In this document: piece after piece, positions 9,733-35,059 of the stretch
Layout of the letters: every line of letters begins with the position of its first letter
Numbering within the stretch: position 1 is the first letter of the stretch
Assembly (NCBI RefSeq): GCF_040564635.1
Contig: NZ_CP159837.1
Coordinates: 3,769,001-3,833,000, forward strand
Direction of reading: 5' to 3'
DNA: 64,000 bases
From: Planktothricoides raciborskii GIHE-MW2
Lineage (GTDB): Bacteria > Cyanobacteriota > Cyanobacteriia > Cyanobacteriales > Laspinemataceae
Translations under genes and position numbers: made by a program
Notes under the pieces: model-generated
What the model was told of the DNA's origin: nothing
What the model saw: only the letters and a program-made list of their open reading frames with translations
Database searches by the model: none

Positions 9733-10323
9733 TATACTCGTCCTTTAGCTCGTTTAATCGAACAACTGCAACGGTTGCCAGGAATTGGGCCAAAAAGCGC
9801 CCAAAGACTTGCTTTGCATATCCTGAAGCGACCGGAAACTGAGGTACAAGCCCTGGCGATCGCCTTGATGGAGGCGAAAAAACAGGTGGGGCTGTGCCAA
9901 GAATGCTTTCATCTTTCTGCGGAGCCGATTTGTGAAATTTGTTCTAATCCCAATCGCGATCAAAATATTCTTTGTGTGGTGGCGGATTCGCGAGATTTGA
10001 TTGCTTTGGAAAAAACCCGGGAATATCGCGGCAAGTATCATGTTTTGGGTGGGGTGATTTCGCCAATGGATGCGATAGGGCCGGAACAATTGACGATTCA
10101 ACCCCTGGTTCGTCGTGTCAGTCAGCAAAATATTCAAGAAGTGATTTTAGCCATTAGTCCCAGTGTGGAAGGCGAAACCACTACTTTATATGTGGGGCAA
10201 CTGCTGAAACCCTTTACCAAAGTGACTCGAATTGCTTTCGGTTTGCCAATGGGCGGCGATTTGGAATATGCCGATGAAGTAACCCTGGCAAGGGCTTTAG
10301 AAGGACGACGAGAATTAGATTAG
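9730..10323 (+). CDS. recR: Recombination mediator protein RecR, apparent ATT start
   Basis: RecR helps load RecA at gaps with RecF/RecO. Visible parts: helix-hairpin-helix [17 protein letters not shown], a four-Cys zinc finger ([16 protein letters not shown]), a Toprim domain ([25 protein letters not shown]), and the C-terminal ending [18 protein letters not shown]. Homologues begin [12 protein letters not shown]; the same residues [13 protein letters not shown] are encoded here directly after ATT at 9730-9732, which stands where their ATG is. A perfect AAGGAGG (9717-9723) lies 6 nt before that ATT. No in-frame ATG or GTG replaces it; the nearest TTG (9775) would remove the first 15 conserved residues and has no ribosome-binding site. 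Length from ATT is 197 residues, normal for RecR. Confidence 0.9.
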
Positions 10324-10510: not shown

Positions 10511-12049
10511 ATGAATGCAAATATTTATGCGATCGCGCCTCTAATCATACCGGGGATGATTCAGCTTCCGAGCAATTGGTTAGTGTTGCTGCCTTCCTAT
10601 TTAGTGGTTTTTTGCGCGGTGTTGGTGATTTTGACCGCAATTGCCATATTGTTGCGCGTGATAGTTTATCAAAATTTGACCCTGATTGCTCATCAAGTCC
10701 GACGACTAATTCACCAGGAAAGCTTACGGAAAAAACCGCAGATTGTTGAAAAAATTGAATATAGATTACAACAATCTTTAACCAACTTAGATCGACTTAA
10801 TACTACGGCTTTAGTGGATCAAGTTTATAGCCAACAATTATCAAAAAATCAACAGTTAGATTATTTTTGCCGGTTATTGCCCAATTTGTTGTTAGCTTTT
10901 GGTCTGCTGGGAACATTTTTGGGGATTACGATGAACCTGAGTGATTTAAGTCAGACGATTAATGAATTTGGCAGTAACAGTATTGATGATTTGGTGCAGC
11001 AAGTGCAAAGACCATTGCAAGGGATGGGCGTGGCTTTTATTAGTAGTTTAACGGCGGTTTCTTGTAGTGTTATGTTGACCTTGGTGAATTTATTGCGGAA
11101 TACTAATGTAGCCCGATATCAACTGTTAAGTGCCTTAGAAGATTATGTGGATAATGTTTATATTCCCAGTTTAGGGCATAAAAGCCCAATGGAGCGATCG
11201 GTCGATCGCCTAGAAGAGTTCTTTCAGCGATTTACCCACGAGTTTGGCATTTCTGTTAGACAAGCGGTTGAGCAATCTTTGGGGGAAAAAGTAACCGCAA
11301 TTATGGACGGAAATCGAGAAGCAAATCATTTGGCTAATCAAGTTTATACCCGCTTTTTAGAGTCCGCTGGGGCGATGAAATCTGGGGCAATGATTTTCCG
11401 GGAGTCAGCGAATATTTTTGAACGGAGTCAGTTTGCTCATAAATTAGCCAGTTCTATGGAAAGTTTGGTGACGACTCAGCGGGAATTATCGCGGTCTGCG
11501 GGGGTGTTGAATCAATCCACTCAATCGATTCAAATGGCGATCGCGGCTTTACAAAGTTCTAATGCGGAAATGGTGCGGTTAAGTGAACAAATTAATTTAA
11601 GCACCAAACAGTCTTCAGAAGTGCTGGGAATGACTCAAGCGAATCAATATTCTCTGGGAGATGTGGTGAACCAACTTCAGCAAGCAAGCCATATTTTCCA
11701 CTCCGTAATTAGAACTTTGGATTTACTGCAAAAACGCTTAGACAATCGTTCTGATCGCTTAATTAATGTCCATGCGGAATTGTCAAAATTAATTGAAGTG
11801 GTGCAGGATTATACGGAAGATGTCACGGTGAATTTGCAAGCAATTGGCGATCGCCTAGTGGTGGCAATTAATGAAAATAGCACCTTTGCTACCTCCCAAA
11901 AACAAGAAGTCACTACCAAAATTTATCAACTGGGGAGTGATTTAAATATGGTGAAATCCCACCTGGGGGAATTAGTCAAAAATTTAGAAAATCATCCCCA
12001 AACAGATGATAGTGAATCAACTCGGATTAGTTATCCACCAGAAGCTTAG
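10511..12049 (+). CDS. MotA/TolQ/ExbB-type proton-channel protein, ZorA-like
   Basis: The 512-residue protein starts with a membrane helix (LLPSYLVVFCAVLVILTAIA), a cytoplasmic loop (about 50-120), then two helices holding the MotA/ExbB core (LLLAFGLLGTFLGITMNL about 125-145 and QGMGVAFISSLTAVSCSVML about 170-190). The last about 300 residues are a long soluble helical tail rich in Gln/Ser (STKQSSEVLGMTQANQYSLG). A MotA-like core with a long helical tail is the design of ZorA, the motor of the Zorya anti-phage system, and the next gene encodes a ZorB-like partner. Proton-channel MotA-family proteins of other function are also possible. I prefer the ATG at 10511 over a TTG four codons earlier. 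Confidence 0.75.
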   Translation: MNANIYAIAPLIIPGMIQLPSNWLVLLPSYLVVFCAVLVILTAIAILLRVIVYQNLTLIAHQVRRLIHQESLRKKPQIVEKIEYRLQQSLTNLDRLNTTALVDQVYSQQLSKNQQLDYFCRLLPNLLLAFGLLGTFLGITMNLSDLSQTINEFGSNSIDDLVQQVQRPLQGMGVAFISSLTAVSCSVMLTLVNLLRNTNVARYQLLSALEDYVDNVYIPSLGHKSPMERSVDRLEEFFQRFTHEFGISVRQAVEQSLGEKVTAIMDGNREANHLANQVYTRFLESAGAMKSGAMIFRESANIFERSQFAHKLASSMESLVTTQRELSRSAGVLNQSTQSIQMAIAALQSSNAEMVRLSEQINLSTKQSSEVLGMTQANQYSLGDVVNQLQQASHIFHSVIRTLDLLQKRLDNRSDRLINVHAELSKLIEVVQDYTEDVTVNLQAIGDRLVVAINENSTFATSQKQEVTTKIYQLGSDLNMVKSHLGELVKNLENHPQTDDSESTRISYPPEA

Positions 12050-12177
12050 TATGGAATTGTAAGCATTCATAGGGGCGAAAAGTATTTCGCCCCACCGAAC
12101 CGATCTTTTTTCAACCAAGAAGATTTGGTGAATTAGAATAGTAGAATAGAGGGAAATGATTATGAGTTTGCGATATT
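12050..12177. promoter_or_regulatory. Hairpin and tandem duplication ahead of the ZorB-like start
   Basis: The spacer holds a hairpin (ggggcgaaa 12072-12080 and tttcgcccc 12085-12093). It also holds a ribosome-binding-like AGAGGGA (12148-12154) followed by tatgagtttgcgatat (12161-12176), which is repeated as tatgagtttgcgatcg at 12177-12192. The second copy contains the in-frame ATG; the first ATG (12162) is in another frame and gives a 19-codon leader ORF that overlaps the gene. Confidence 0.6.
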
Positions 12178-13062
12178 ATGAGTTTGCGATCGCGTCGTCA
12201 AGAAGCCTTAGAAGATTTTGATGTTTGGCCAGCCTTTACGGACTTAATGTCAAATTCTTTTATGATTTTGAGCTTTATTCTGTTGCTGGCAATTATTAAA
12301 CCCCTGGTTTCAATTAATAGTCTGCGAGCCACAGAAGAACAATTAAGAAGTGAAAACCGGCAACTGCAACAACAAATAGAAAATGCCCGGGCAGAAGTAG
12401 CCAGGAATCAGGCTCAAATTCGTTTTTTTAACAATGAAATTCGCCAACTTGAAGCCAGTGTCACTCAGCAACGACAACGGGCTGAAAATGCCGAAAGACA
12501 AGTGAGGAATTTTGCCGATCAAGCCCGAACATTACAAACCCAGTTAGACGAAGAAACCCAGCGACCCAAAGCCCCGCCGATTATCGTGATTCAAGAAACT
12601 GGTTCTTATCAATTTCAGTCCGGTAGTGCGGCATTACCTGAGCCATTAACCCGCTATATTCGGCAACAGTTAGTCCCCCAAATTGAGACTAATGCCGCAC
12701 AATATCAAATTGATGTGGTGGAGATTATTGGTCATACCGATGGTCAGGTGAATCAAGGGGGAGTGAGTAATTTAGATCAAGTGCTAGAAAATGTGGCCAA
12801 GGGGAATAACTCTTTAAATCAGTTATCTCCCGGTTCTAATGCGGATTTAGGTTTAATGAGAGCCTTAGCCGTGGTGAAAATTTTACAGGAAATTCAACAA
12901 AAAGAAGGGCGGCTAAAAGGGTTACAGTTTCGTCCATATTCGGCGGCGCAATTAGTTACTCCTAGCGGCGATTTCGCCGAAACGAATCGCAATCCTGATG
13001 GAAAACGGCGGCGAATTGAAATTAGATTTACCCGCTTGGGTCAGGTGACAAATGTGGAGTAA
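12178..13062 (+). CDS. MotB/OmpA-family stator protein, ZorB-like
   Basis: The 294-residue protein has a short cytoplasmic leader, one membrane helix with a conserved Asp at its start (WPAFTDLMSNSFMILSFILL; Asp22 is the expected ion-carrying residue), a coiled coil (about 55-125; Gln/Arg/Glu-rich), and an OmpA-like peptidoglycan-binding domain (about 150-290) with IIGHTDGQ, NADLGLMRALAV and KRRRIEIRF. This pairing of a MotA-like and an OmpA-domain protein, one after the other, is the ZorA-ZorB arrangement; an Asp in W-x-x-F-x-D at the membrane face is also the MotB/ZorB pattern. The 16-bp duplication at the start moves the ATG 23 nt from AGAGGGA, so translation may be weak or phase-variable. 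Confidence 0.78.
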   Translation: MSLRSRRQEALEDFDVWPAFTDLMSNSFMILSFILLLAIIKPLVSINSLRATEEQLRSENRQLQQQIENARAEVARNQAQIRFFNNEIRQLEASVTQQRQRAENAERQVRNFADQARTLQTQLDEETQRPKAPPIIVIQETGSYQFQSGSAALPEPLTRYIRQQLVPQIETNAAQYQIDVVEIIGHTDGQVNQGGVSNLDQVLENVAKGNNSLNQLSPGSNADLGLMRALAVVKILQEIQQKEGRLKGLQFRPYSAAQLVTPSGDFAETNRNPDGKRRRIEIRFTRLGQVTNVE

Positions 13063-13439
13063 AACAATTAGAAGTGGTGGCTAAAAAAATGGGCGATCGC
13101 TCCCATATGATTTAATCTGATCTAATCTAACAATGCCTTCGCCATTTTCATGCATTGCCTTGAAAATGGCGAAGGTATTGATCTAAGTTAAAGCATATTT
13201 CAAAAATCCCACCCAGACCCGATCGCCCTCCAGATAGAGCCGATCGCCCAGTCCTGGCAAGTAATCGCCCGTTACTTGGGCGATCGCACCCCCTATTCCC
13301 TAAATTTAGCCTGCCTGAATTTAGCCTGCCTGAATTTAGCCTGATTGATGATTTTGATGGCAAAATCGCAGTACAACTAAACTAAGTGCAATCAAAAATC
13401 TAACACTTCATGCAACAGTAAACCAGGAGGGCAATCAAA
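13063..13439. other. Intergenic region with hairpin and 15-bp tandem repeat
   Basis: A perfect 15-bp stem (ccttcgccattttca 13136-13150 and tgaaaatggcgaagg 13161-13175) with a 10-nt loop lies 73 bp after the ZorB-like gene; no T-run follows, so it is not a standard terminator. At 13302-13345 a 15-bp unit (gaatttagcctgcct) is repeated about three times. A ribosome-binding AGGAGG is at 13425-13430. No gene is supported. Confidence 0.6.
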
Positions 13440-14660
13440 GTGTCACTTAGAATTTTAAGTTTAGATGGTGGGGGAATTCGGGGGGTTTTAGCCGCCCAAA
13501 TGCTGTTGAGCCTAGAAAAACGCTTAGGGAAACCACTGAACCAATATTTTGATTTAATCAGCGGCACTTCTACCGGGTCAATGTTAGCTGCCGCCATTGC
13601 TATGGAAATTCCGGCGGAAAATATTGTTGATTTCTACCGACAAAAAGGCAAAATCGTCTTTCCTTATACGGATGGTTTAGATGTCAAGCGACTACCCGTG
13701 ATGCTGGAATATGGATTTTTAGGGCCGAAATTTTCTAATCGCGGCTTGAAAACTGTCCTCCAAGATCTCTTCGGAGACAAAAAACTCGCAGATGTAAGTA
13801 AATGCAAGTTGTTGATTACCAGTTATGACACCTTGGAACGAGAACCGATTATATTTAAAAGTTGGGACTCTAAATTTGCTCAAACACCATTGTGGGAGGC
13901 TTGCATTTGTTCGGCTTCAGCCCCCACTTTTTTCCCGGCTCATAAATTAGAGCGAGAATATCATGGGACAGTGGTCAGCGCCACAGAAACCACAATTATT
14001 CTCGATCAAATGGCCGCAACCGATCATAATGATTACCGAAATATGGAGATGACGATTACCAACGGCAAAGGCAAGAATCAGCGACGGATGATTAAGCAAT
14101 ATAACGGGGAAAAACGAGAGGCAATTGTTAATGAACCTTGGCAAGAAATTCCCGATCGCACTTCGACTTATCAATTATACAAACAATACTGTGCGATCGA
14201 TGGCGGTTTAGCGGCTAATAATCCCACCGCTTGCGGAGTGGCTGCCGGAATTCGACTCGGTTATAGCCTCAATAATTTGCACGTTCTGTCTATTGGCACA
14301 GGGGATCCGACCCGAAAAATTCCTTGGGAAGCGGCGAGAAAATGGGGAGCATTTCAATGGATTAAAGGTGGTTTAGTGATCAAGGTAATGACCGATGCTC
14401 CCTCGGATATTTACGATTATATTACAGAGCAAATTATTGGGGATAATTCTCGTTATATTCGCCTACAATTTCCCTTAGATCGACAATTAACCGCTAAAAG
14501 ATTAAGCGATGATATGGATGACGCCAGTGAGGAAAATATTAACAATTTAATTGAAGCGGCAGATGTTTATATCAATCTGCCAGAAAATCAGAAAATTTTA
14601 AAGCAGTTTTTTGCCCAGTTCGAGCCGGATTTGGGGGAGTTTTCTGGCACCCAAACCTGA
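13440..14660 (+). CDS. Patatin-like phospholipase with inserted beta-rich segment
   Basis: The 406-residue protein has all patatin catalytic features: oxyanion motif DGGGIRG (residues 9-15), nucleophile elbow GTSTG (Ser44) and the catalytic Asp in DGG (Asp254). It should hydrolyse acyl chains of membrane lipids. Between about 172 and 245 it carries a segment unlike the patatin core: VVSATETTIILDQMAA, MTITNGKGKNQRRMIKQYNG, DRTSTYQLY. From memory this pattern matches short beta-rich segments of phage tail or structural proteins. AGGAGG lies 9 nt before the GTG start. Same-strand position after the ZorAB-like genes suggests a shared role, but the 377-bp gap means it may have its own promoter. 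Patatins are lipases in CBASS (CapV) and in ordinary lipid turnover. Confidence 0.88.
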   Translation: MSLRILSLDGGGIRGVLAAQMLLSLEKRLGKPLNQYFDLISGTSTGSMLAAAIAMEIPAENIVDFYRQKGKIVFPYTDGLDVKRLPVMLEYGFLGPKFSNRGLKTVLQDLFGDKKLADVSKCKLLITSYDTLEREPIIFKSWDSKFAQTPLWEACICSASAPTFFPAHKLEREYHGTVVSATETTIILDQMAATDHNDYRNMEMTITNGKGKNQRRMIKQYNGEKREAIVNEPWQEIPDRTSTYQLYKQYCAIDGGLAANNPTACGVAAGIRLGYSLNNLHVLSIGTGDPTRKIPWEAARKWGAFQWIKGGLVIKVMTDAPSDIYDYITEQIIGDNSRYIRLQFPLDRQLTAKRLSDDMDDASEENINNLIEAADVYINLPENQKILKQFFAQFEPDLGEFSGTQT

Positions 14661-15003: not shown

Positions 15004-16887
15004 ATGCTGAACTTATCTGGCTATCAGGAGACAAAACTTCTCTACAGTGGAAACCGTACCCTAGTCTATCGAGCGATTCAAGTCCAGACTCTCCAAGCTG
15101 TTATTATCAAAGTGTTGCGAAACTCCCACCCCAACTTTAATGAGTTGGTTCCTTTCCGCAATCAATAAGTTGTTCCAAGCAGGCGATCGCTATGTAGGGG
15201 TGAAGCATTACGAGAGTCAATCTTTCATTAGCACCGATGAATCAATTGCTGGAATGCGCGGGCCACTACATGGCCGTAAAATATTGCTTTTTGCACGATC
15301 GCATTCAGCAAGCGGCTTATTCCCTAATTCCCGAAAATTTGAAACAAAGCACCCATCTAAAAATTGGCCAACAATTACCTCGATAAACTGGCCGAATCAG
15401 ATCCACAAAAACGAATTTTTGAACAGGTCAAACAGTTAAATTACGGCCAACATTTAATTACAGAACCGCAGCAAAAAATTCACCTAGCCAAACTCAACTG
15501 CCGGAGAAAAAGCCAAAAATGCCACGGCTTATCAAGCAGCGGCAATCTATTTAGGGGTGGGAATGCAATTACTAGGCAATCATGGGATTTTGAGTATATT
15601 TTAACCAAAAATATTTATACCTTAGCCACGGAGGTAGCTTATCTCAATGGAGATTTTGCCGATATGGAAATCTTGGCTCGGTTAATGTTACGCCACGGCA
15701 AAAACTGGATCAAATTCCCGTTTATGAAACTCTCATTGTTGCCCATATTGTGCAAAAAAAACAACTTTTAGCGGTGAAAACAGCTTTATCAGTGTTGCAA
15801 AAGTTAGGGATTTCACTGCCGGAACAACCGACCACCGCAGACTTTACTCAAGAACCCAAAGCAGTTAATCAAAATTTACAAGGTTGCCCCATTGAAAATT
15901 TGGTCAATCTGCCTTTAATCAGCGATCGCAACATGGCTGCGGAAATGCGAATTTTGGCCAGCATTTTTTCCGCATTTACTCCCGTTAATTGCCTTTAAAA
16001 TAGTCAAATCTATTCAATATGGAAATGCCCCAGATTCGGCGTTTGGTTATAGTCTTCATGGCTTAATTATTTATGGAGTTTTAGGCGACATTGAATCAGG
16101 ATATGCTTATGGTCAAGTAGCCCTGTCTTTACTACAACGGGGTCAAGCCAAGGGTTATCAGGCTTCCGAGAAATTTTTGCCACATTTATTCAACATTGGC
16201 AAGAACCTTTACACGCCACCTTGCCCCTATTAATGCAAAGCTATCAAGATGGATTAGAAGAAGGAGATTTAGAATTTTCCGGCTATTCTCTCTCCAATTA
16301 TGCCTATCATTCTCTATGGTTAGGCAAAAATCTGAAAGATTTATCCCAAGAAATAGCCAATCATAACCAAGCTTTAGCAAAAATCAACCAAAATGTTGCC
16401 CAAACTCACCACAAAATTCACTGGCAAACTCTGCTGAATTTACTCGGAGAAGCCGAAAATCCGCAAATTCTGGTTGGCCGAGTTTATGATACCACGGCAA
16501 TGGTTGGCATGAAGAAAAAAGTGATTTTACCGGACTGGCTTTTTTATTCCTTTGCCAGATGTTTCTCTGTTATCTCTTTGAAGATATGCCAACCGTTGCC
16601 CAGCACTTAGCAACCGTGAATCAATATTTGGGGGCATTAATTGGTTCTAGTTGTATTGGGGTTTTTCATTTTTATGATTCTTTGGTGCAATTAGCCAATT
16701 TTGATGGGGAATTAACCGCTACAGCTAATGAAATTTTAGACCGAGTGAACGCCCATCAAGAAGAAATCGCGAAATGGGCTAACTCTGCCCCAATGAATTA
16801 TCAGCATAAGTTTGATTTGGTAGCCGAATAAAAATATCGGCTGTTGGGAGAAATCCTCAAGTCGATTCAGAAAATTCTCAATAAAAA
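15004..16887 (+). pseudogene. Decayed Ser/Thr kinase-AAA-TPR signalling protein
   Basis: The fragments read in order like the giant HstK-type kinases of filamentous cyanobacteria (kinase, AAA ATPase, helical repeats, GAF, histidine kinase; about 1800-2000 residues). First, LSGYQETKLLYSGNRTLVYR and ELVPFRNQ (15004-15168) are a kinase N-lobe that ends at a stop. The rest of the kinase and most of the ATPase are deleted. Next, [14 protein letters not shown] is readable near 15295. Then come helical-repeat pieces in shifting frames (LAKLNC about 15490, LQKLGISLPEQP about 15800, GDLEFSGYS about 16265, LGEAENPQILVG about 16450, VFHFYDSLVQLANFDG about 16660). After VAE an in-frame TAA (16829-16831) is followed by KYRLLGE, so decay continues to about 16887. 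GAF and histidine-kinase domains are absent. Confidence 0.8.
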
Positions 16888-17062: not shown

Positions 17063-18739
17063 CTATTTTAAATTAGCCAAATTTTGCTGAAACCTAGCCA
17101 ATAAATTAGCTAAAAATTCTATTTCATACTGAGCCATCATCATCTCTTTTGATGGTTCAGGATTTTGGATGACAATCATCTGTCCTACTTTGATTTCATA
17201 GTCTTTTAAAGTAGCGAATGCTTGCTCGCTAAATCGCGTTAAATAGTCTTGGGCGGCATGATTGTAAGCTTCTATCAGTTGAGCGTGATAAGCTTCATTA
17301 GATAGGTTTGATTTTGAGGAATTTGCGGGTGATTTAGTTAAAATATAAGTAGCACCACCGGCAACCGCTGCCCCCACTGGACCGCCCAATAACCAACCTA
17401 ATCCAGTGGCGATCGCTGTTGGTAAACTACTCCGAGATTTTTGTCCTGATGGTTTGATAGAATCAGGAGGGGCAGGTAATAAAACCTGGGGCGGTTCGGG
17501 AAAAGAAATGTCAATTTCCCCCGGATGATTGATGGGAAAAAATTCACTGGCTTTCTTCACCCATTCCATAATTCCGGTTTGATATTTGCCAATTTCTGCT
17601 TGAAATTGTTCGGTTCGCCAAGTGTCAAATTTAGTGGTTTCTAAAGCTTTGGCTAGGTCGTTTTGATAGCGGTCTAATAATTTGGGTAAATATAGCCAAC
17701 TTTGAAAATCTGATAAGGCAGCTTCGATTCCTTGTTTAATCAGTTTTTCGGCTTTTTGTTGAATGGCAATTTTTTGCTGTTGTTTTTCTTGGGCAGTTGC
17801 TAATGATTGTAATGCCTCGGATTTTTTTGCTTTTAAAACTTCGCATATTTGATGCGCGATCGCCTCTATTCTAGATAAGGGTACAGTGTTTTTTTCTTGT
17901 TGGGCAGTGACAATCATTTGTAGGGCTGATTCAAACATAGATAAGCCACTGGTTTGCGCCGCAGCCACATCACCTTTGAGTTTAGCACGCAATGCGGGCA
18001 AGGCATCAACCCGATATAAATTACTCACTCCATCCGGCAAATCTGCCCGAAAACTTTCTGCCACAAACCGCATCCGGTTAGATACTTCTTTTTGCTCTTC
18101 GGGTTCTAGTAAATTGAGAAAATTAACCACAAATACTACCGTGTTAATCCCCCGATCTAATAGCCAATCTCGGAGATTTTCTCGTTCTCCCAAGGTCATC
18201 AGTTTCCGCCCATCTAAAAGCTGAATAATTAAATCTGCCCCTAAGAGGCGATCGCGCACTAAATTATCTTGGGCTTCCTGGTCATTAGTGCCTGGTAAAT
18301 CCAGAAATTCTACCCCAGTTTTCAAGAACGGATGGGGACAATAGACTTCTACGGATGCCACATCATCGCGCATTCTTCTGGCATCAGAAAGAATGGCATA
18401 ATCCTGGAGAATTTTAGTCCCCGGTTCGCGAATTTCTTGGCCATTAGTTAAAGTAATTTTAGTGGATAACTCTTGACCGTATTTTACCAGAATCGCCGCC
18501 CCAGTGGTGGGAATTAAATCAATGGGCAGAGTCTTTTCTCCCAGTAACGCATTCAGTAGGGTAGATTTGCCATAATTAAATGGCCCAAACACCGCAATTC
18601 TAAAAGCGGGATTTTCCAGAAACTCACCAAGGGCGATCGCATCTTTTCGCAGTTGGGCATATTGCTGCTTATCTAATAGACCAATGGCCGATTGCAGGGT
18701 ATGAATAAAATCCTGATTAATTTGCTGCTGTTTGATCAT
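17063..18739 (-). CDS. Dynamin-like GTPase (short form)
   Basis: The 558-residue protein carries a dynamin-type GTPase domain (about 45-260): P-loop GPFNYGKST (G1), TTGAAILVKYG (G2 region), DLPG (G3). At G4 it reads VVNFLN, so the usual Asp of N/T-K-x-D is Asn. The helical region (about 290-400) has many Lys/Gln residues; near 440-470 lies a Gly/Ala-rich hydrophobic stretch (TAIATGLGWLLGGPVGAAVA) that may insert in or associate with membrane, as the paddle does in bacterial dynamins. It remodels or guards membrane by GTP-driven assembly, by family. It lies on the same strand as a longer dynamin 405 bp upstream. Confidence 0.8.
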   Translation of the reverse strand: MIKQQQINQDFIHTLQSAIGLLDKQQYAQLRKDAIALGEFLENPAFRIAVFGPFNYGKSTLLNALLGEKTLPIDLIPTTGAAILVKYGQELSTKITLTNGQEIREPGTKILQDYAILSDARRMRDDVASVEVYCPHPFLKTGVEFLDLPGTNDQEAQDNLVRDRLLGADLIIQLLDGRKLMTLGERENLRDWLLDRGINTVVFVVNFLNLLEPEEQKEVSNRMRFVAESFRADLPDGVSNLYRVDALPALRAKLKGDVAAAQTSGLSMFESALQMIVTAQQEKNTVPLSRIEAIAHQICEVLKAKKSEALQSLATAQEKQQQKIAIQQKAEKLIKQGIEAALSDFQSWLYLPKLLDRYQNDLAKALETTKFDTWRTEQFQAEIGKYQTGIMEWVKKASEFFPINHPGEIDISFPEPPQVLLPAPPDSIKPSGQKSRSSLPTAIATGLGWLLGGPVGAAVAGGATYILTKSPANSSKSNLSNEAYHAQLIEAYNHAAQDYLTRFSEQAFATLKDYEIKVGQMIVIQNPEPSKEMMMAQYEIEFLANLLARFQQNLANLK

Positions 18740-19144: not shown

Positions 19145-21223
19145 TCAAGAAACCGCTACCAAAAACTCCTGATAAACTGTCTCAATATCCTGTGACTCTG
19201 AAGCTACGGTAGCCTCCAAGGTTTTCAACCGGGCTAATTCCGCCTCGCGATTAATTTCATAAGCTTCTTTTTGTTTCAGCAAATTATCTAACTCAGCTTT
19301 CCGAGATTGAATATCATCATTCACTCGTTCACTCACTTCGCGATCGTAAGTTTCAAAACATTCTTTAATCGCATTATAAACCGGCTGCCATTGCTGTTGC
19401 GCCACTTCTGGGAGATATTTGACTAACTCTTTTTTCGTCGCTTTGACTAATTCTTTCCGGGCTTGATCTGCTTGGAAAACTCCCACACCCAAAGCCAACA
19501 TTCCCAAACCCACAGGGCCGAGAACCATCCCCGTTGCCGCAGTAATTAAAGCCCCAATTCCCGCCACCGTAATTAAATTTAATAAGATATTTTGCCAGTC
19601 AAAACCAGCCCCAGCCATTGCCACTCCTGCCAAATTTCCCCGCGCTAAAGAAAACAAACCCATCGCCCATTTTGCCCAAGCAGGAGATTTATCTTCGGTG
19701 GTAGAACCGATCGCCGCTTTCACTTTTTGTCCGGTCAGTTTTTCCGAGATTTTATCGGTGACATTAGTATAATCTGTCCCGTACTTAGACGCACTCATGG
19801 ATAACTGTAAAAAAGCCGCGTCCATCTCTTTTTCTACGCTACGAGTCCAAGCGGCTAATTTATCGGTGACATATTGCTCAAAAGCTTTGGCTAACTGTTG
19901 TTCAAAGGCTGAACGTTTCCCCGCACTCAAGAAATCCAGAAACCGTAAATCTGGCTGATAGCGGAGAAAATCCGTTTCAAAAGTATCCCCCAATCCGAGA
20001 ATATAATCCCGGAAAGAATTAGCAATACTGCTGGCTTTTCGATCGCGCATGGTTCTAATCTCATTCTGGAAGCGATCGCGAATCTGATTTAGTTGCTCAA
20101 ACTCCGGTTCTACGGAGCTAATTTTCTCTTTTAATGCCTGGACATTTTCATTTAACAAAGGAATCCGCCGCTGGATGGCTTCCCGGACATAACTATTGGT
20201 TTGTCGGGCTAAAGTGCGGGCTTGACGAAATTCTGCGATCGCTCGTTCTTTAGTTAAAAAAGTATTCAGCGCCCCCAAAAACGGGGAAAATCCTGTTCCT
20301 TCCAACGAGGCATCAGGATTTTTAATCCGGCGTCGAAGTGCCTGAATTGAAGACAGTTCAAACACCCGCTCATCATAAATACTTTGTCCTTCTAGCTGAC
20401 AATATTCCGCCAAATTTGCGTGAAAAACCCGCCGGAGTCTATCCTCTGCTGCCGCCAATTCTTCCGCATCATCTGGGTCAATCAAACTTTCTTTCACTTG
20501 GTCCCAAGCATTGATTAAAAAGAAGACCGTTAACCCTCGGTCTTTAATATAGTTTTCTAAATAGCGGCGTTCGCCCAAAGTGCAAGGTTGTGACGCTCGC
20601 AAAACAAATAAAATCGCATGGCAATTATTAATATAACCCAGGGAAAGTTCGTTACGCGCTTCCGTATCATTCAGCCCCGGACTATCCACAATTTCCACCC
20701 CTTTTTGTAGCAACGGTAAGGGATATTCTACTACCGCATAATCTACATTAGGAAAAGCTTGCTTTTTCTCAGCTTCTAATCGTTTTGCCTCCGCTGGATC
20801 GATGGTATAGCGCTGTTTAAAGCTTTTAAAATCGATAGTTTCTGGGGCTGTGTTATCATTAAAATAAACGGTGACTTTTTTTTCAGATCCATAACGCAAT
20901 ACGGTTAATAACGCCGTGCAAGGATTCACATCACTGGGCAGTAAATTTTCCCCAATTAGGGCATTTAAAAATGTACTTTTTCCCCGTTTCATATCCCCTA
21001 ACACCAGCAGTCTAAAAACCCCTTGACTTAAGTTTTTACTGGCTTTGGTCAAATCACCGATTTCTCGTTCCAACCCTAAACGCCCGGATTTTGTATCACT
21101 TTCGGTTTCTGAACGGGTTAAAGTAGCGGCTATTTCTGCCAAAGAATCAGCGATCGCCCCACGGACTTTAGCCACCTTATCCAAATCATTGATAAACTTG
21201 TTGCTTTCAATTTGATAACTCAT
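19145..21223 (-). CDS. Bacterial dynamin-like protein, BDLP type
   Basis: This 692-residue protein matches the length and design of Nostoc punctiforme BDLP (about 693 residues). The GTPase domain has G1 GDMKRGKSTFLNALIGE (about 75), NPCTALLTVLRYG (G2), DSPGLNDTEARNELSLGYIN (G3 region, about 185) and NAWD (G4, about 240). Long helical neck/trunk segments follow (about 330-510), then a hydrophobic hairpin paddle (about 545-590; ILLNLITVAGIGALITAATG, LGPVGLGMLALGVGV), then a final helix bundle. BDLP binds membrane through the paddle and tubulates it on GTP binding. A paralogue lies at 26950-29025 on the same strand; between them is the RTX gene in repeat arrays, so the pair may once have been adjacent. 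Confidence 0.92.
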   Translation of the reverse strand: MSYQIESNKFINDLDKVAKVRGAIADSLAEIAATLTRSETESDTKSGRLGLEREIGDLTKASKNLSQGVFRLLVLGDMKRGKSTFLNALIGENLLPSDVNPCTALLTVLRYGSEKKVTVYFNDNTAPETIDFKSFKQRYTIDPAEAKRLEAEKKQAFPNVDYAVVEYPLPLLQKGVEIVDSPGLNDTEARNELSLGYINNCHAILFVLRASQPCTLGERRYLENYIKDRGLTVFFLINAWDQVKESLIDPDDAEELAAAEDRLRRVFHANLAEYCQLEGQSIYDERVFELSSIQALRRRIKNPDASLEGTGFSPFLGALNTFLTKERAIAEFRQARTLARQTNSYVREAIQRRIPLLNENVQALKEKISSVEPEFEQLNQIRDRFQNEIRTMRDRKASSIANSFRDYILGLGDTFETDFLRYQPDLRFLDFLSAGKRSAFEQQLAKAFEQYVTDKLAAWTRSVEKEMDAAFLQLSMSASKYGTDYTNVTDKISEKLTGQKVKAAIGSTTEDKSPAWAKWAMGLFSLARGNLAGVAMAGAGFDWQNILLNLITVAGIGALITAATGMVLGPVGLGMLALGVGVFQADQARKELVKATKKELVKYLPEVAQQQWQPVYNAIKECFETYDREVSERVNDDIQSRKAELDNLLKQKEAYEINREAELARLKTLEATVASESQDIETVYQEFLVAVS

Positions 21224-26949: not shown

Positions 26950-29025
26950 CTAAACAGGAGATGAGAGTAAATCTTGGTAAGCCGATTCGATAGTTTTTAG
27001 CTGGGAAAGTACCTCCCCATCCAACATTTTCAGGCGGCTTAATTCCTGAGCATAATCAATCTCTTGGGATTGCTTTTGTGCCACCAAGTTGTCAAGTTCC
27101 CCTTGACGAGATTTAATATCCGCATTCAGCCGCTTGCTGACTTCGCGATCGTAGTCATTAAAACATTGCTCAACTACATCATAAATCGATTGCCATTGAG
27201 ATTGGGCTAATTCTGGAAGGGATTTAATAAACTCTTTCTTGGTAGCTTTGATAAATTCTTTCCGGGCTTCATCTGCTTGTAAAGCCCCCACTCCTAAACC
27301 TAATAAAGGAATGCCGATTAAACCAATGGAAGCGAGGGGGCCGGCAAACAATAATAAAAAGGTACTAATGCCAATTACCGCCACATAATTGACCAGAATA
27401 TTTTTCCAATCAAATCCAGCACTAGCCATCACTACCCCAGCCACATTTCCCGTGGTTAAGGAGAAAAAACCCATTGCCCAACTCGCCCAAGATGGCGCAT
27501 CTTCTTCTAATTCAGTGTTAATTCCCCGGTGAATTTTTTGCCCGGTTAATTTCTCGTTAATCAGTTGAGTGACTTGAGTATAATTCGCCCCATATTTGGC
27601 AGCACTTTGGCTCAGTTGGGCAAAAGCATCAGCAATTTGTTTTTCGGCAATCAGTTCCCATTCGGCGATTTTTTCATTCAAATAACGCTCAAAAGCTTGC
27701 TGGAATTCCGCATTAAACTGTTCTCGTTTGCCCTTTTGCAGAGAATCTAAAAAACCGAGATTTGGCTGATACCGGACAAAATCCAATTCAAAAGTCTTGC
27801 CTAAATCTAAAATATAGGTGCGAAAAGAATCGGCCACTTTTTTGGCTTGCCGATCGCGCATTTCCCCAATTTCTTCCTGGAAGCGATCGCGAATATCCGT
27901 CAACATTTCAAACTCTGGGGACACCGACGCAATTCGATTTTTCAACTCTTGCAAATCTTCCCCTAACAAAGGAATTCGACGGGCGATCGCATCATGGCAA
28001 TGGTTATAACTTTGACGGGCTAAAGTTCGCGCTTGGCGAAGTTCTGCCACCGCTCTTTCTTGAGTCAAAAACGTATTCAAAGCCGCCATAAAACCAGGAA
28101 ACCCCGTTCCTTCTAGGCTATCTTCTGGGTGTTTTAAGCGGCGGCGCAAAGCATTAAGAGAACATAGCTCAAAGACTCGTTCATCATAAACATTTGCCCC
28201 ATTAATTTGACAATATTCTGCCAGATTAGTTTGGAAAAATTGCCGCAGTTTTGCCTCTGCCTCCGCCAATTCTGCCCCATCATCTATATCAACCAGACCC
28301 AGGCGAATTTCATCCCAACCATTAATCAGGAAAAACACATTTAACCCGCGATCTTTGATATAATTATCTAAATAGCGCCGCTCATTCAACGTCAAAGGTT
28401 GCGAAGCCCGTAACACAAACAAAATAGCTTGACTATTATGCACATAATTTAACGATAACTCGTTGCGGGCTTCCGTATCATTCAGACCGGGACTATCCAC
28501 AATTTCCACCCCTTTTTCTAAAAGAGGTAAAGGATACTCGACTACCGCATAGTTAACATTAGGAAATGCGGCCTGATTTTCTCTTTCCAGCTTTTTCCCT
28601 TCATCGGGGTCGATAGTATATTTTTGCTTGAAAGTATTAAAATCGATAGTTTCTGGCAGTTTGCCTTCCTTAAAATAAACCGTAACTTTTTTTTCTAGGC
28701 CATAACGTAACACCGTCAGCAATGCCGTACAAGGATTCACATCACTGGGTAATAAATTTTCCCCAATCAGCGCATTCAGTAACGTACTTTTACCCCGTTT
28801 CATATCGCCCAAAACCAGCAGTCTAAATACTCCTGATTTTAGATTTTGGCTGGCTAATTTCAGGTCATCAATATCCGCGTCTAGTCCGAATTTTCCTGAG
28901 TGAGTTTCGGCAACTTCTTCTGACTTAGACAAAATTTCAGCCATTGTTCCCAGATAGTCCGCCACATTCGAGCGGATACTGGCAACTCGATCTAAGTTAT
29001 TAATTAATCTGGTACTTTCCATCAT
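26950..29025 (-). CDS. Bacterial dynamin-like protein, BDLP type (paralogue)
   Basis: This 691-residue protein is co-linear with the 19145 gene over its whole length. It has G1 GDMKRGKSTLLNALIGENLL, G2 NPCTALLTVLRYG, G3 DSPGLNDTEARNELSLNYVH, and NGWD at G4. The paddle region (about 545-590; ILVNYVAVIGISTFLLLFAG) is as hydrophobic as in its paralogue but different in sequence, while the GTPase core is nearly the same, which suggests the two co-assemble with distinct membrane contacts. It probably deforms or repairs the cytoplasmic or thylakoid membrane. A small membrane-protein gene lies 116 bp upstream on the same strand. Confidence 0.92.
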   Translation of the reverse strand: MMESTRLINNLDRVASIRSNVADYLGTMAEILSKSEEVAETHSGKFGLDADIDDLKLASQNLKSGVFRLLVLGDMKRGKSTLLNALIGENLLPSDVNPCTALLTVLRYGLEKKVTVYFKEGKLPETIDFNTFKQKYTIDPDEGKKLERENQAAFPNVNYAVVEYPLPLLEKGVEIVDSPGLNDTEARNELSLNYVHNSQAILFVLRASQPLTLNERRYLDNYIKDRGLNVFFLINGWDEIRLGLVDIDDGAELAEAEAKLRQFFQTNLAEYCQINGANVYDERVFELCSLNALRRRLKHPEDSLEGTGFPGFMAALNTFLTQERAVAELRQARTLARQSYNHCHDAIARRIPLLGEDLQELKNRIASVSPEFEMLTDIRDRFQEEIGEMRDRQAKKVADSFRTYILDLGKTFELDFVRYQPNLGFLDSLQKGKREQFNAEFQQAFERYLNEKIAEWELIAEKQIADAFAQLSQSAAKYGANYTQVTQLINEKLTGQKIHRGINTELEEDAPSWASWAMGFFSLTTGNVAGVVMASAGFDWKNILVNYVAVIGISTFLLLFAGPLASIGLIGIPLLGLGVGALQADEARKEFIKATKKEFIKSLPELAQSQWQSIYDVVEQCFNDYDREVSKRLNADIKSRQGELDNLVAQKQSQEIDYAQELSRLKMLDGEVLSQLKTIESAYQDLLSSPV

Positions 29026-32878: not shown

Positions 32879-33085
32879 ATTGTGCTGATGAGCGTGTAAT
32901 CTATTTAAATCTATAACTCAATCAGCGGTGATTGTGGGCAAAAGCGGCGGCAAAGGTAAATTTTTATTTGAGTCAGTACGGTGCAGGGACAAAATTAGCA
33001 CAAAAAATACAAATTGCTTCGATGTTCACATCGGAGCGACAATAATCATAGTTTAAGTGGCATAACATGGGGGCAAACCAGCCGT

Positions 33086-35059
33086 ATGAAGGAGTGGGTT
33101 CAAGATAGTAAATCGCGGTCTCTTAGCCGACAGCTTCCGAAATACCGCGTTTTGGCCCGGGTGGGACAGGGACAATTTGGCCAGGTTTTTTGTGCCGTAG
33201 AACGGCAAACCGGCCAACTGGTGGCATTGAAGGAAATCACCCACCGTCGCTTATCCACATCTAAGTTTTTACGAGAATTGGGGTCACTGTTGACCTTACA
33301 ACATCCCAACATTGTCACCTGTCGCGCTTTTGAAGCCACCACCACGGCGCGATATTTGGTCATGGATTACTGTGAAGGCGGCACCTTGCGTGAGTTGCTA
33401 GAGTCGGAAAATTCCCTTTCCTTGGGTGAAGCCTTAACTATTATGCAAGGAATTCTGGCGGGACTAGAACAAGCTCACCGTCACGGAATTATTCACTGTG
33501 ATATTAAGCCAGAAAATATCCTCCTGGGATTAGATGCCGGGATGTGGTTGCCGCGCTTATCGGATTTTGGCATTGCCCGTCGCTTGTCAGAAATCGCTCA
33601 AAATCGAGGCACCGTAGAATCAGCGGACGGGAGTATTGATGTGGTGGGAGCGCCTGCTTATACGTCCCCGGAAGCATTTTATGGGATGTATTCTCGCTCC
33701 TCGGATATTTATGCGATGGGAATTGTGTTTTTTGAACTGTTGCTGGGTGATCGTCCTTTTACGGGAATACCAGAACGGTTGATGTGGGCGCATTTAAATC
33801 AACCCCTGGAAATTCCCGTTGGTCTGCCAGAACCTTTGCAGGCCATTTTGAAACAGGCTTTGGCCAAGTTGAAAGGGCGCCGCTATGGGACAGCGGCAAA
33901 AATGTCAGAGGCGATCGCGCAAGTAATGAATCATCCAGAGATTTTACCCTTGATGGCAAGACCTCTGCCCTTCAAAGAAGCTGACCCCAACAAAGATGAG
34001 GACAGAATACAAGTGCCAAATATTTGTATCTTTGACCAGCAAGAATTACCTGGTGTTTTAACAGGTCTATGTTCAGGACATGGTAATCTTTACGGAATTT
34101 TCCAGCAAAACACAGTTTTGAACTGGCAGCCATGCCAAACCGAGGCAATACACCTAAATTTCCCAGAACCGGTTCAGGAAATTATCCCTTTGGCAAATAG
34201 CTGTTTAGTGAGTACCTGTGAGTTAGACCCAGGGAAAAGCGGATCGATTTACTGGGTATCGGCAAAATCTAGGCAACCTCACCGCTTGTTGAAGTTTAAA
34301 CAAGGGTTTACGGTAGCGGCTGACCCTTGTGGTCAATCGTTGGTGGTGGCAGTTTTGAGCCAGCCGGAAAAAAAGACTCTGCGATTTGGGTTTTATTCCT
34401 TGGGAACCGATCAAGATGGAAACAAACCACCGCCGGTGAAGTTGTTAAAAAGCCTTTCTCTGTCCGTGGGTATGTTGCCCCAGTTGATGTTTCTGGATCG
34501 CCGTCATGTATTAAGCGTCTGGCACAGCCGCGAAGCCAAAAAGCCCCAAACTATCTTTAAGATGTATAGCCGTAAGGGGACGCAGATGGGTTCGGTGCGA
34601 TCGCCTCTTCTCTTTGAGCGACTGATTTTCACCGATGCCCCAGGGATTTTGTTTGGCATTGTCCGGGAGCCCAGACCCGCCGTCTGGCGGATCCAGCTTT
34701 TCCCCATGCAACTGATGCGAATTCCCCTAGAAACCATGCCAACTTGTTTATCTCCCATCCCCGGAGGCTGTCTGTTAGCCAATGCTAAAGGTGAAATCAC
34801 CTGTTTGGATCGCCAAGGACAGAATAATGGTAAGTTTCAATTTGGCTTCCAGGCTCCCCTGGGATTTGGGTTTTGGACTGGAACAGAAGCTGAAACCGCT
34901 GAAACCACCGCTGAAACCACCGCTGAAACCGCTGAAACCACCGCTGAAACCAAAGATATCACCAACATCACCAACAATTTTCTCGGTCTAGCTGGGGTCA
35001 CAGAGGCGGCGAATGGTAGCTGTATTTCTTTTATTCAAATCAAGAAACCGGGTTTCTGA
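33086..35059 (+). CDS. Ser/Thr protein kinase (Hanks type)
   Basis: From the ATG at 33086 the product has 657 residues. The kinase domain (about 20-290) shows GQGQFGQV, the ATP-binding Lys49 (VALKE), HCDIKPENILL (catalytic loop), SDFGIAR (metal-binding), APAYTSPEA. An earlier in-frame start at 33014 is not supported by homology. The part after about 320 resembles a beta-rich sensor region but I do not recognise it. Near the C-terminus there is a Thr/Glu repeat (AETTAETTAETAETTAETK, encoded by a tandem gctgaaaccacc DNA repeat, 34885-34955). The last residues (KKPGF) come from an AGAAACC palindrome that supplies the stop context. The target is unknown. Confidence 0.88.
   Translation: MKEWVQDSKSRSLSRQLPKYRVLARVGQGQFGQVFCAVERQTGQLVALKEITHRRLSTSKFLRELGSLLTLQHPNIVTCRAFEATTTARYLVMDYCEGGTLRELLESENSLSLGEALTIMQGILAGLEQAHRHGIIHCDIKPENILLGLDAGMWLPRLSDFGIARRLSEIAQNRGTVESADGSIDVVGAPAYTSPEAFYGMYSRSSDIYAMGIVFFELLLGDRPFTGIPERLMWAHLNQPLEIPVGLPEPLQAILKQALAKLKGRRYGTAAKMSEAIAQVMNHPEILPLMARPLPFKEADPNKDEDRIQVPNICIFDQQELPGVLTGLCSGHGNLYGIFQQNTVLNWQPCQTEAIHLNFPEPVQEIIPLANSCLVSTCELDPGKSGSIYWVSAKSRQPHRLLKFKQGFTVAADPCGQSLVVAVLSQPEKKTLRFGFYSLGTDQDGNKPPPVKLLKSLSLSVGMLPQLMFLDRRHVLSVWHSREAKKPQTIFKMYSRKGTQMGSVRSPLLFERLIFTDAPGILFGIVREPRPAVWRIQLFPMQLMRIPLETMPTCLSPIPGGCLLANAKGEITCLDRQGQNNGKFQFGFQAPLGFGFWTGTEAETAETTAETTAETAETTAETKDITNITNNFLGLAGVTEAANGSCISFIQIKKPGF

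What the first reader, a model, noticed from the sequence alone, without database searches (positions are those of the whole stretch)
10511..14660. ZorA/ZorB-like motor genes followed by a patatin lipase: candidate defence or envelope module
Seen: a MotA/ExbB-type three-helix protein with a 300-residue helical tail, then an OmpA-domain protein with a membrane-face Asp (W-P-A-F-T-D), then a patatin with intact GTSTG and DGG. Known: ZorA/ZorB of Zorya form a proton-driven membrane motor that senses phage entry and recruits a nuclease effector (ZorC/ZorD or ZorE). Inference: here no ZorC, ZorD or ZorE gene is next to the pair; a membrane lipase could take the effector place. Neighbouring dynamin-like genes and a decayed kinase give an accessory context. 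The 377-bp gap to the patatin is a weak point.
Basis: partly seen in the sequence, partly recalled or inferred. Interest (0 to 1): 0.72.

Follow-up and report, generated by a model that had tools for sequence, protein, structure and literature searches.

The report
Stand-alone ZorAB-type cyanobacterial envelope motor
The two genes encode what looks like a working ion-driven motor of the cell envelope that this family of filamentous cyanobacteria inherits as a fixed gene pair next to recR; it is a distant cousin of the Zorya anti-phage motor rather than a Zorya system, and the lipase gene beside it is there only in this genus, by rearrangement.

Summary
In detail: intact ZorA-like (10511-12049), ZorB-like (12178-13062) and patatin (13440-14660) genes, with a 377-bp gap before the patatin. 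The pair scores 44 and 29 bits against PADLOC ZorA/ZorB; genuine cyanobacterial Zorya loci score 652-717 and 234-240, with ZorC adjacent. The patatin sits beside the motor in only 3 of 14 family genomes (one genus); orthologues elsewhere lie apart, 0.9 Mb away on two large contigs. The motor is not patchy: ZorA is in 14/14 family genomes, beside recR in every locus examined. Most relatives in other cyanobacteria lie in an operon vWA - FtsZl1 (Tubulin_2) - ZorA-like - ZorB-like, the predicted membrane-remodelling system of Makarova and Koonin, whose main text names no MotA/TolQ motor. At least two lineages, beside recR (this window) and beside phoH, stand apart from FtsZl1, with long periplasmic stalks and short cytoplasmic tails. 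Ion-path residues (ZorA T139, S183; ZorB D22) and peptidoglycan-binding residues are invariant or nearly so. Best reading: a vertically inherited, peptidoglycan-anchored envelope motor with an unknown output partner. Homology, conserved ion path and ancestry are supported; rotation and function are inferred.

The parts
10511..12049 (+). ZorA-like motor subunit (512 aa from ATG; three-helix MotA/TolQ/ZorA core plus about 290-residue helical cytoplasmic tail)
   Evidence: PADLOC ZorA1 44 bits; PDB ZorA 8qyh E 2e-5; family profile: 8vvn ZorA E 1.6e-11; fold; T139 and S183 invariant in 56/56
12178..13062 (+). ZorB-like motor subunit (294 aa): one transmembrane helix with D22, about 80-residue coiled-coil stalk, OmpA-type peptidoglycan-binding domain
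   Evidence: PADLOC ZorB1 28.8 bits; family profile: 8vvn ZorB E 3.5e-8; model pLDDT 84.5; D22 in 52/52; T187, R278 and R279 in 52/52
9775..10323 (+). recR, the fixed upstream neighbour of this motor lineage
   Evidence: recR immediately upstream of ZorA in all family loci fetched
13131..13180 (.). 20-nt inverted repeat (95% complementary) in the ZorB-patatin gap; not conserved in L033
13440..14660 (+). patatin-like phospholipase; neighbour, judged not part of the module
   Evidence: Pfam PF01734 88.7 bits; NCBIfam CBASS_lipase 200.6 against cut-off 200; adjacency only in 3 of 14 family genomes

Best explanation
The ZorA-like/ZorB-like pair is a stand-alone, vertically inherited member of a cyanobacterial ZorAB-type motor family whose other members mostly sit in FtsZl1 (Tubulin_2) operons. 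Likely working: five ZorA-like and two ZorB-like chains form an inner-membrane stator. Ions pass D22 of ZorB along the T139/S183 ring of ZorA. The OmpA domain of ZorB, on a roughly 10-13 nm periplasmic coiled coil, grips the peptidoglycan. The resulting movement is passed on by the ZorA tail in the cytoplasm or by the stalk in the periplasm, for an envelope housekeeping task. The patatin is an unrelated neighbour. Shown: gene content, homology, invariant ion-path and peptidoglycan residues, vertical inheritance, split from Zorya, loss of FtsZl1 linkage. Inferred: 5:2 stoichiometry, ion flow, rotation, the envelope task. Unknown: the partner that uses the movement.
For: ZorA-like protein in 14/14 family genomes and 5/5 genera at 55-57% outside the genus, beside recR in every family locus examined; ZorB-like in the host, in G291 and in 10 of the 11 family genomes outside the genus. 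In G293 ZorB is 310 kb from ZorA yet kept. Invariant T139/S183 (56/56) and D22 (52/52), with peptidoglycan residues H186-T187-D188, D223, R228, R278, R279 invariant in the family alignment. Closest solved relatives are ZorA and ZorB. Most relatives are in vWA-FtsZl1-ZorA-ZorB operons; window pair groups with these and apart from true Zorya. The recR and phoH stand-alone lineages both have stalks of 68-96 residues and tails of 151-310; FtsZl1-linked ones 8-68 and 296-615. Motors persist in genomes with no FtsZl1 hit: G065, G097, G198, G231, G245 and single-contig G293. dN/dS 0.10-0.17.
Against: No experiment. Function, ion and stoichiometry rest on homology. ZorA model confidence is modest (pLDDT 70) and by fold alone TolQ/ExbB tie with ZorA. 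ZorB was not found in G292. ZorA and ZorB are 128 bp apart here, so co-transcription is likely but untested. Two other FtsZl1-free branches (L058/L062, L064/L065) have short stalks, so stalk length does not follow FtsZl1 loss in every case.
Confidence: 0.66

Rival explanations
1. Zorya-like defence module with the patatin as effector: the motor senses phage entry and the lipase destroys the membrane.
For: ZorA/ZorB are the nearest relatives; the patatin matches CBASS phospholipases; order recR-ZorA-ZorB-patatin is kept in the genus at 87-93% protein identity.
Against: Adjacency only in one genus (3/14 family genomes); patatin orthologues of 63-65% identity sit elsewhere in the other 11, about 0.9 Mb from the motor on the same contig in G293 and G296. 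377-bp gap with an inverted repeat that is not conserved. Real Zorya in the same class scores over 650 bits with ZorC beside it. Universal presence in the family is unlike a defence gene.
Confidence: 0.05
2. The motor works in trans with the two FtsZl1 (Tubulin_2) systems elsewhere in the same genome, as its linked relatives presumably do in cis.
For: Two FtsZl1 genes in the host genome; 13 of 14 family genomes have one; motor and FtsZl1 co-occur strongly in the class sample (26 of 31 motor genomes against 77 of 291 overall, Fisher p 1.6e-12).
Against: The host FtsZl1 genes belong to another operon type (zinc-ribbon plus vWA genes, 25-30% identity, no motor). The single-contig family genome G293 keeps both motor genes with no FtsZl1 hit, as do G065 and G097. 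The co-occurrence is partly caused by the linked operons themselves and by shared ancestry.
Confidence: 0.14
3. The motor energises a TonB/TolA-like force transducer, that is, an ExbBD/TolQR-type outer-membrane energy system with a peptidoglycan anchor.
For: In 10 of the 11 family genomes outside Planktothricoides a TonB-like protein (714-892 aa, S-x3-H transmembrane motif, Pro-rich, TonB_C domain 19-27 bits) lies within about 5 kb of ZorA, in two arrangements, with only its N-terminal 63-83 residues and the TonB_C stretch conserved between genera.
Against: It is on the other strand (convergent) in most, and not found in the Planktothricoides window, the 40 kb upstream of it, or near either motor gene of G293. 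The host has a separate ExbBD pair that could serve ordinary TonB. Neighbour conservation within one family is weak evidence.
Confidence: 0.12

Closest known systems
Zorya ZorAB (types I and II; PDB 8qyd, 8vvn, 8vvi; PMC11890865)
   Same: MotA/TolQ-type ZorA with helical cytoplasmic tail, ZorB with one transmembrane Asp helix and OmpA-type peptidoglycan domain; ion-path residues kept
   Different: No ZorC/D or ZorE; 10-fold lower HMM scores than real cyanobacterial Zorya; vertical, recR-linked; separate branch on the tree
FtsZl1 (Tubulin_2, PF13809) - vWA - OmpA system (Makarova and Koonin 2010, PMC2875224)
   Same: The motor pairs of its cyanobacterial operons are the nearest relatives at locus level and share the invariant residues
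   Different: No vWA or FtsZl1 gene at this locus; longer periplasmic stalk, shorter cytoplasmic tail; persists without FtsZl1 in some genomes
TolQR / ExbBD
   Same: Core fold of the large subunit (VIA Z 11-12, tied with ZorA)
   Different: Small subunit here has an OmpA domain and a long coiled coil; large subunit has a roughly 290-residue tail; Pfam MotA_ExbB 13.5 bits, under cut-off 22.9
CBASS cGAMP-activated phospholipase (CapV family) for the patatin
   Same: NCBIfam NF041079 200.6 bits against cut-off 200; patatin catalytic motifs
   Different: No cyclase noticed next to it; about 80-residue insertion at 174-250

Membership tests
Zorya anti-phage system | ZorA and ZorB that match Zorya profiles like known members | tested here: not met
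   PADLOC 44 and 28.8 bits against 652-717 (ZorA) and 234-240 (ZorB) for cyanobacterial Zorya L066/L067. NCBIfam cut-offs are missed too, but true cyanobacterial Zorya also misses them, so that test is not decisive.
Zorya anti-phage system | Effector genes ZorC+ZorD, ZorE (or type III partners) beside ZorAB | tested here: not met
   No such PADLOC hit among the 15 window proteins scanned, nor a recurrent effector-like partner in relatives; positive control found ZorC in L066 and L067
Zorya anti-phage system | Phylogenetic grouping with Zorya ZorB/ZorA | tested here: not met
   ZorB branch 100/100 parts L066-L068 from all others; for ZorA the split is only 88/65
Zorya anti-phage system | Ion-path residues and peptidoglycan-binding ZorB | tested here: met
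   T139, S183, D22 and OmpA-motif residues invariant or nearly so; shared with other 5:2 motors, so not specific
Zorya anti-phage system | Protects against phage | not testable with these tools
   needs plaque assays
FtsZl1 / vWA membrane-remodelling system | FtsZl1 and vWA genes in the same operon | tested here: not met
   Absent at the locus; the two FtsZl1 genes of the genome are megabases away with other partners
FtsZl1-associated ZorAB-like motor family | Sequence grouping with the FtsZl1-linked motor pairs | tested here: met
   BLAST cluster and trees; 37-40% (ZorA) and about 50-55% (ZorB) identity to the nearest linked ones
CBASS | Effector lipase of the CBASS family | tested here: inconclusive
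   NCBIfam NF041079 200.6, cut-off 200
CBASS | CD-NTase (cyclase) gene beside the effector | tested here: not met
   No cyclase hit among the window proteins scanned with PADLOC, which include the large neighbours

The most novel reading that the evidence does not exclude
Cyanobacteria couple a ZorAB-type ion-driven 5:2 motor to a tubulin-superfamily GTPase (FtsZl1) and a vWA protein in one operon, so that the motor's cytoplasmic tail acts on, or is controlled by, a tubulin-like filament. The window carries a descendant that was freed from the filament and re-purposed by lengthening its peptidoglycan stalk and shortening its tail.
Probability: 0.3. Interest if true: 0.82.

Novelty: new variant of a known kind. 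Interest (0 to 1): 0.52.

Why it matters
ZorAB-type motors are known almost only from phage defence. Here is a branch inherited like a housekeeping gene, and its nearest relatives are wired to a tubulin-like GTPase whose function has been open since 2010. That gives the FtsZl1 system a candidate energy source and mechanism, shows that ZorA/ZorB hits in defence scans of cyanobacteria need not mean defence, and offers natural pairs (linked and freed motors, both in G311 and G319) to test what the ZorA tail and ZorB stalk do.

Tried and rejected
Patatin as effector: rejected on synteny. Genuine but diverged Zorya: rejected with a positive control. NCBIfam cut-offs as a test: dropped, because true cyanobacterial Zorya misses them too. 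Fold search to tell ZorA from TolQ/ExbB: not discriminating, Z values tied. vWA relative in the own genome: none found with one query, although other vWA-like genes accompany the host FtsZl1 loci. Promoter/terminator scan of the region: no more sites than in shuffles. HtpX-adjacent ZorAB pair in other family genomes looked at as a possible new Zorya effector type; the neighbour is an M48 peptidase. Literature: no paper held describes a MotA/TolQ-type motor in FtsZl1 operons or a stand-alone cyanobacterial ZorAB; the supplements of Makarova and Koonin, which list further associated families, could not be read.

Full report
What is there. The three genes are real and intact: ZorA-like 10511-12049, ZorB-like 12178-13062, patatin 13440-14660, after recR (9775-10323) and proS. 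The host is a Planktothricoides: a contig of Planktothricoides sp. SR001 encodes the identical ZorA-like protein. The window is G000:C1:3769001-3833000 of a 7.2-Mb single contig.

Family tests. The ZorA-like protein hits PADLOC ZorA1 at 44 bits and the ZorB-like protein ZorB1 at 28.8 bits. Pfam MotA_ExbB gives 13.5 bits, under its cut-off of 22.9. In the PDB by sequence only ZorA is found among motor proteins (8qyh, E 2e-5), and a profile of the family finds ZorA 8vvn (E 1.6e-11) and ZorB 8vvn (E 3.5e-8) first. As positive control, two loci of the same class (L066, L067) score 717/652 bits for ZorA and 234/240 for ZorB, and have ZorC next to them at 248/478 bits. So the window pair is ZorAB-related but far outside Zorya. 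NCBIfam cut-offs do not help, because those true Zorya proteins miss them as well.

Relatives. A class-wide sample gave a match in 34 of 291 genomes, three of them (G008, G022, G111) weak and lying on the true-Zorya side of the trees. In the fetched neighbourhoods the commonest arrangement is vWA - 1050-1100 aa protein - ZorA-like - ZorB-like. The long protein is Tubulin_2 (PF13809, 364 bits) and the first a weak vWA. This is the FtsZl1 system predicted by Makarova and Koonin (PMC2875224) to remodel membranes, with vWA, GTPase and OmpA partners. Their main text does not mention MotA or TolQ; the OmpA partner may be the ZorB-like gene. Trees place the window pair among these motors and split them from true Zorya, strongly for ZorB (100/100), weakly for ZorA (88/65).

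Stand-alone lineages. In the host's family all 14 genomes (5 genera) encode the ZorA-like protein, at 55-57% identity outside the genus, and every family locus examined has recR just upstream. ZorB follows it in all genera but two: in G293 it lies 310 kb away, in G292 it was not found. A second stand-alone lineage follows a phoH-like gene (L034/L134, L135, L136, L137; L035 and L050 group with it). G311 and G319 carry both a stand-alone and an FtsZl1-linked motor, so the two types do not replace each other. In the concatenated tree the recR lineage lies beside one FtsZl1-linked clade and the phoH lineage among others, so linkage was lost (or never gained) at least twice; deep nodes are weakly supported.

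Anatomy. Ion-path positions T139 and S183 of ZorA (aligned to T147 and S184 of the solved E. coli ZorA; their role is from my own knowledge of that structure, and PMC11890865 describes the Ser/Thr ring and the essential ZorB Asp) are invariant in 56 of 56 sequences, and D22 of ZorB in 52 of 52. OmpA-domain residues H186, T187, D188, D223, R228, R278, R279 are invariant. ZorB is modelled well (pLDDT 84.5): one helix from 17 to 127, then the OmpA fold. The stalk (residues 45-133) is 68-96 residues in the recR and phoH lineages against 8-68 in FtsZl1-linked ones, and the ZorA tail is 151-310 against 296-615. Two further FtsZl1-free branches have short stalks, so this is a trait of the two lineages, not a rule. 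The ZorA core is more conserved than its tail (48 against 29% to the phoH type, 45 against 25% to the linked type), and the OmpA domain far more than the stalk: the ion path and wall anchor are held, the output side varies.

The patatin. It is a good patatin, at the threshold of the CBASS lipase model. In the family every genome has an orthologue or close relative, but it is beside the motor only in G000, G320 and G291, all of the genus. In the largely closed G293 and G296 it is about 0.9 Mb from the motor. The 377-bp gap is not conserved except for about 110 bp before the patatin, which suggests its own promoter (inference). In other families the relatives examined are not beside motors.

Is FtsZl1 needed? 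The host has two FtsZl1 genes elsewhere, of another operon type without motor. 13 of 14 family genomes have one, but single-contig G293 has none detectable and still has both motor genes. In the class sample 26 of 31 motor genomes have FtsZl1, five do not.

Mechanism. The best reading is a peptidoglycan-anchored, ion-driven envelope motor. Steps shown: homology, conservation of ion path and wall-binding residues, purifying selection, vertical inheritance. Steps inferred: 5:2 assembly, ion flow, rotation, transmission through tail or stalk, an envelope task. A TonB-like transducer near the locus in 10 of 14 family genomes is a candidate for the output, with weak evidence: it is absent from the Planktothricoides neighbourhood.

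Verdict. Observation confirmed; the envelope alternative is favoured over defence; the patatin link fails. The unexpected result is the operon of relatives, which joins a ZorAB-type motor to a tubulin-superfamily GTPase.

Noticed in passing
L041:7900-14850 and 20+ further loci: Four-gene operon vWA - FtsZl1 (Tubulin_2) - ZorA-like - ZorB-like in many cyanobacteria; the motor genes are not mentioned in the main text of the 2010 description of FtsZl1 systems.
   Followed up: yes
L122:11303-13447, L124:4839-7517, L125:11582-13741 and orthologues: TonB/TolA-like protein (S-x3-H helix, Pro-rich, TonB_C) within about 5 kb of the recR-ZorA locus in 10 of 14 family genomes, in two arrangements; not seen near the motor in Planktothricoides or G293.
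   Followed up: partly
L143:9248-12446 and L144 (G300, G296): A second, Zorya-profile-positive ZorAB pair (274 and 237 bits) without ZorC/D/E, followed by an HtpX-like M48 peptidase; related ZorA in G297, G301, G302.
   Followed up: partly
window 15004-16831: Decayed Ser/Thr kinase-AAA-GAF-histidine kinase gene; the 90%-identical relative L033 has it intact (1839 aa).
   Followed up: partly
L071:7800-14103, L072:8303-14183 (host genome): Two FtsZl1 loci of a second type: about 540-aa gene with a zinc-ribbon-like N-terminus, 290-300-aa vWA-like gene, then FtsZl1, no motor.
   Followed up: partly
window 17063-18739, 19145-21223, 26950-29025 (-): Three bacterial dynamin-like genes in 12 kb (two with PF21808 at 566-590 bits), weak LeoA-type PADLOC hits.
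   Followed up: no
window 33014-35059: Kinase-like protein with PADLOC mad6 / PD-T4-6 hits (up to 208 bits); probably an ordinary Ser/Thr kinase, not examined further.
   Followed up: no
L122:4238-5944: In G292 a GmrSD-type restriction gene lies directly after ZorA where ZorB would be, and no ZorB was found in that genome.
   Followed up: no
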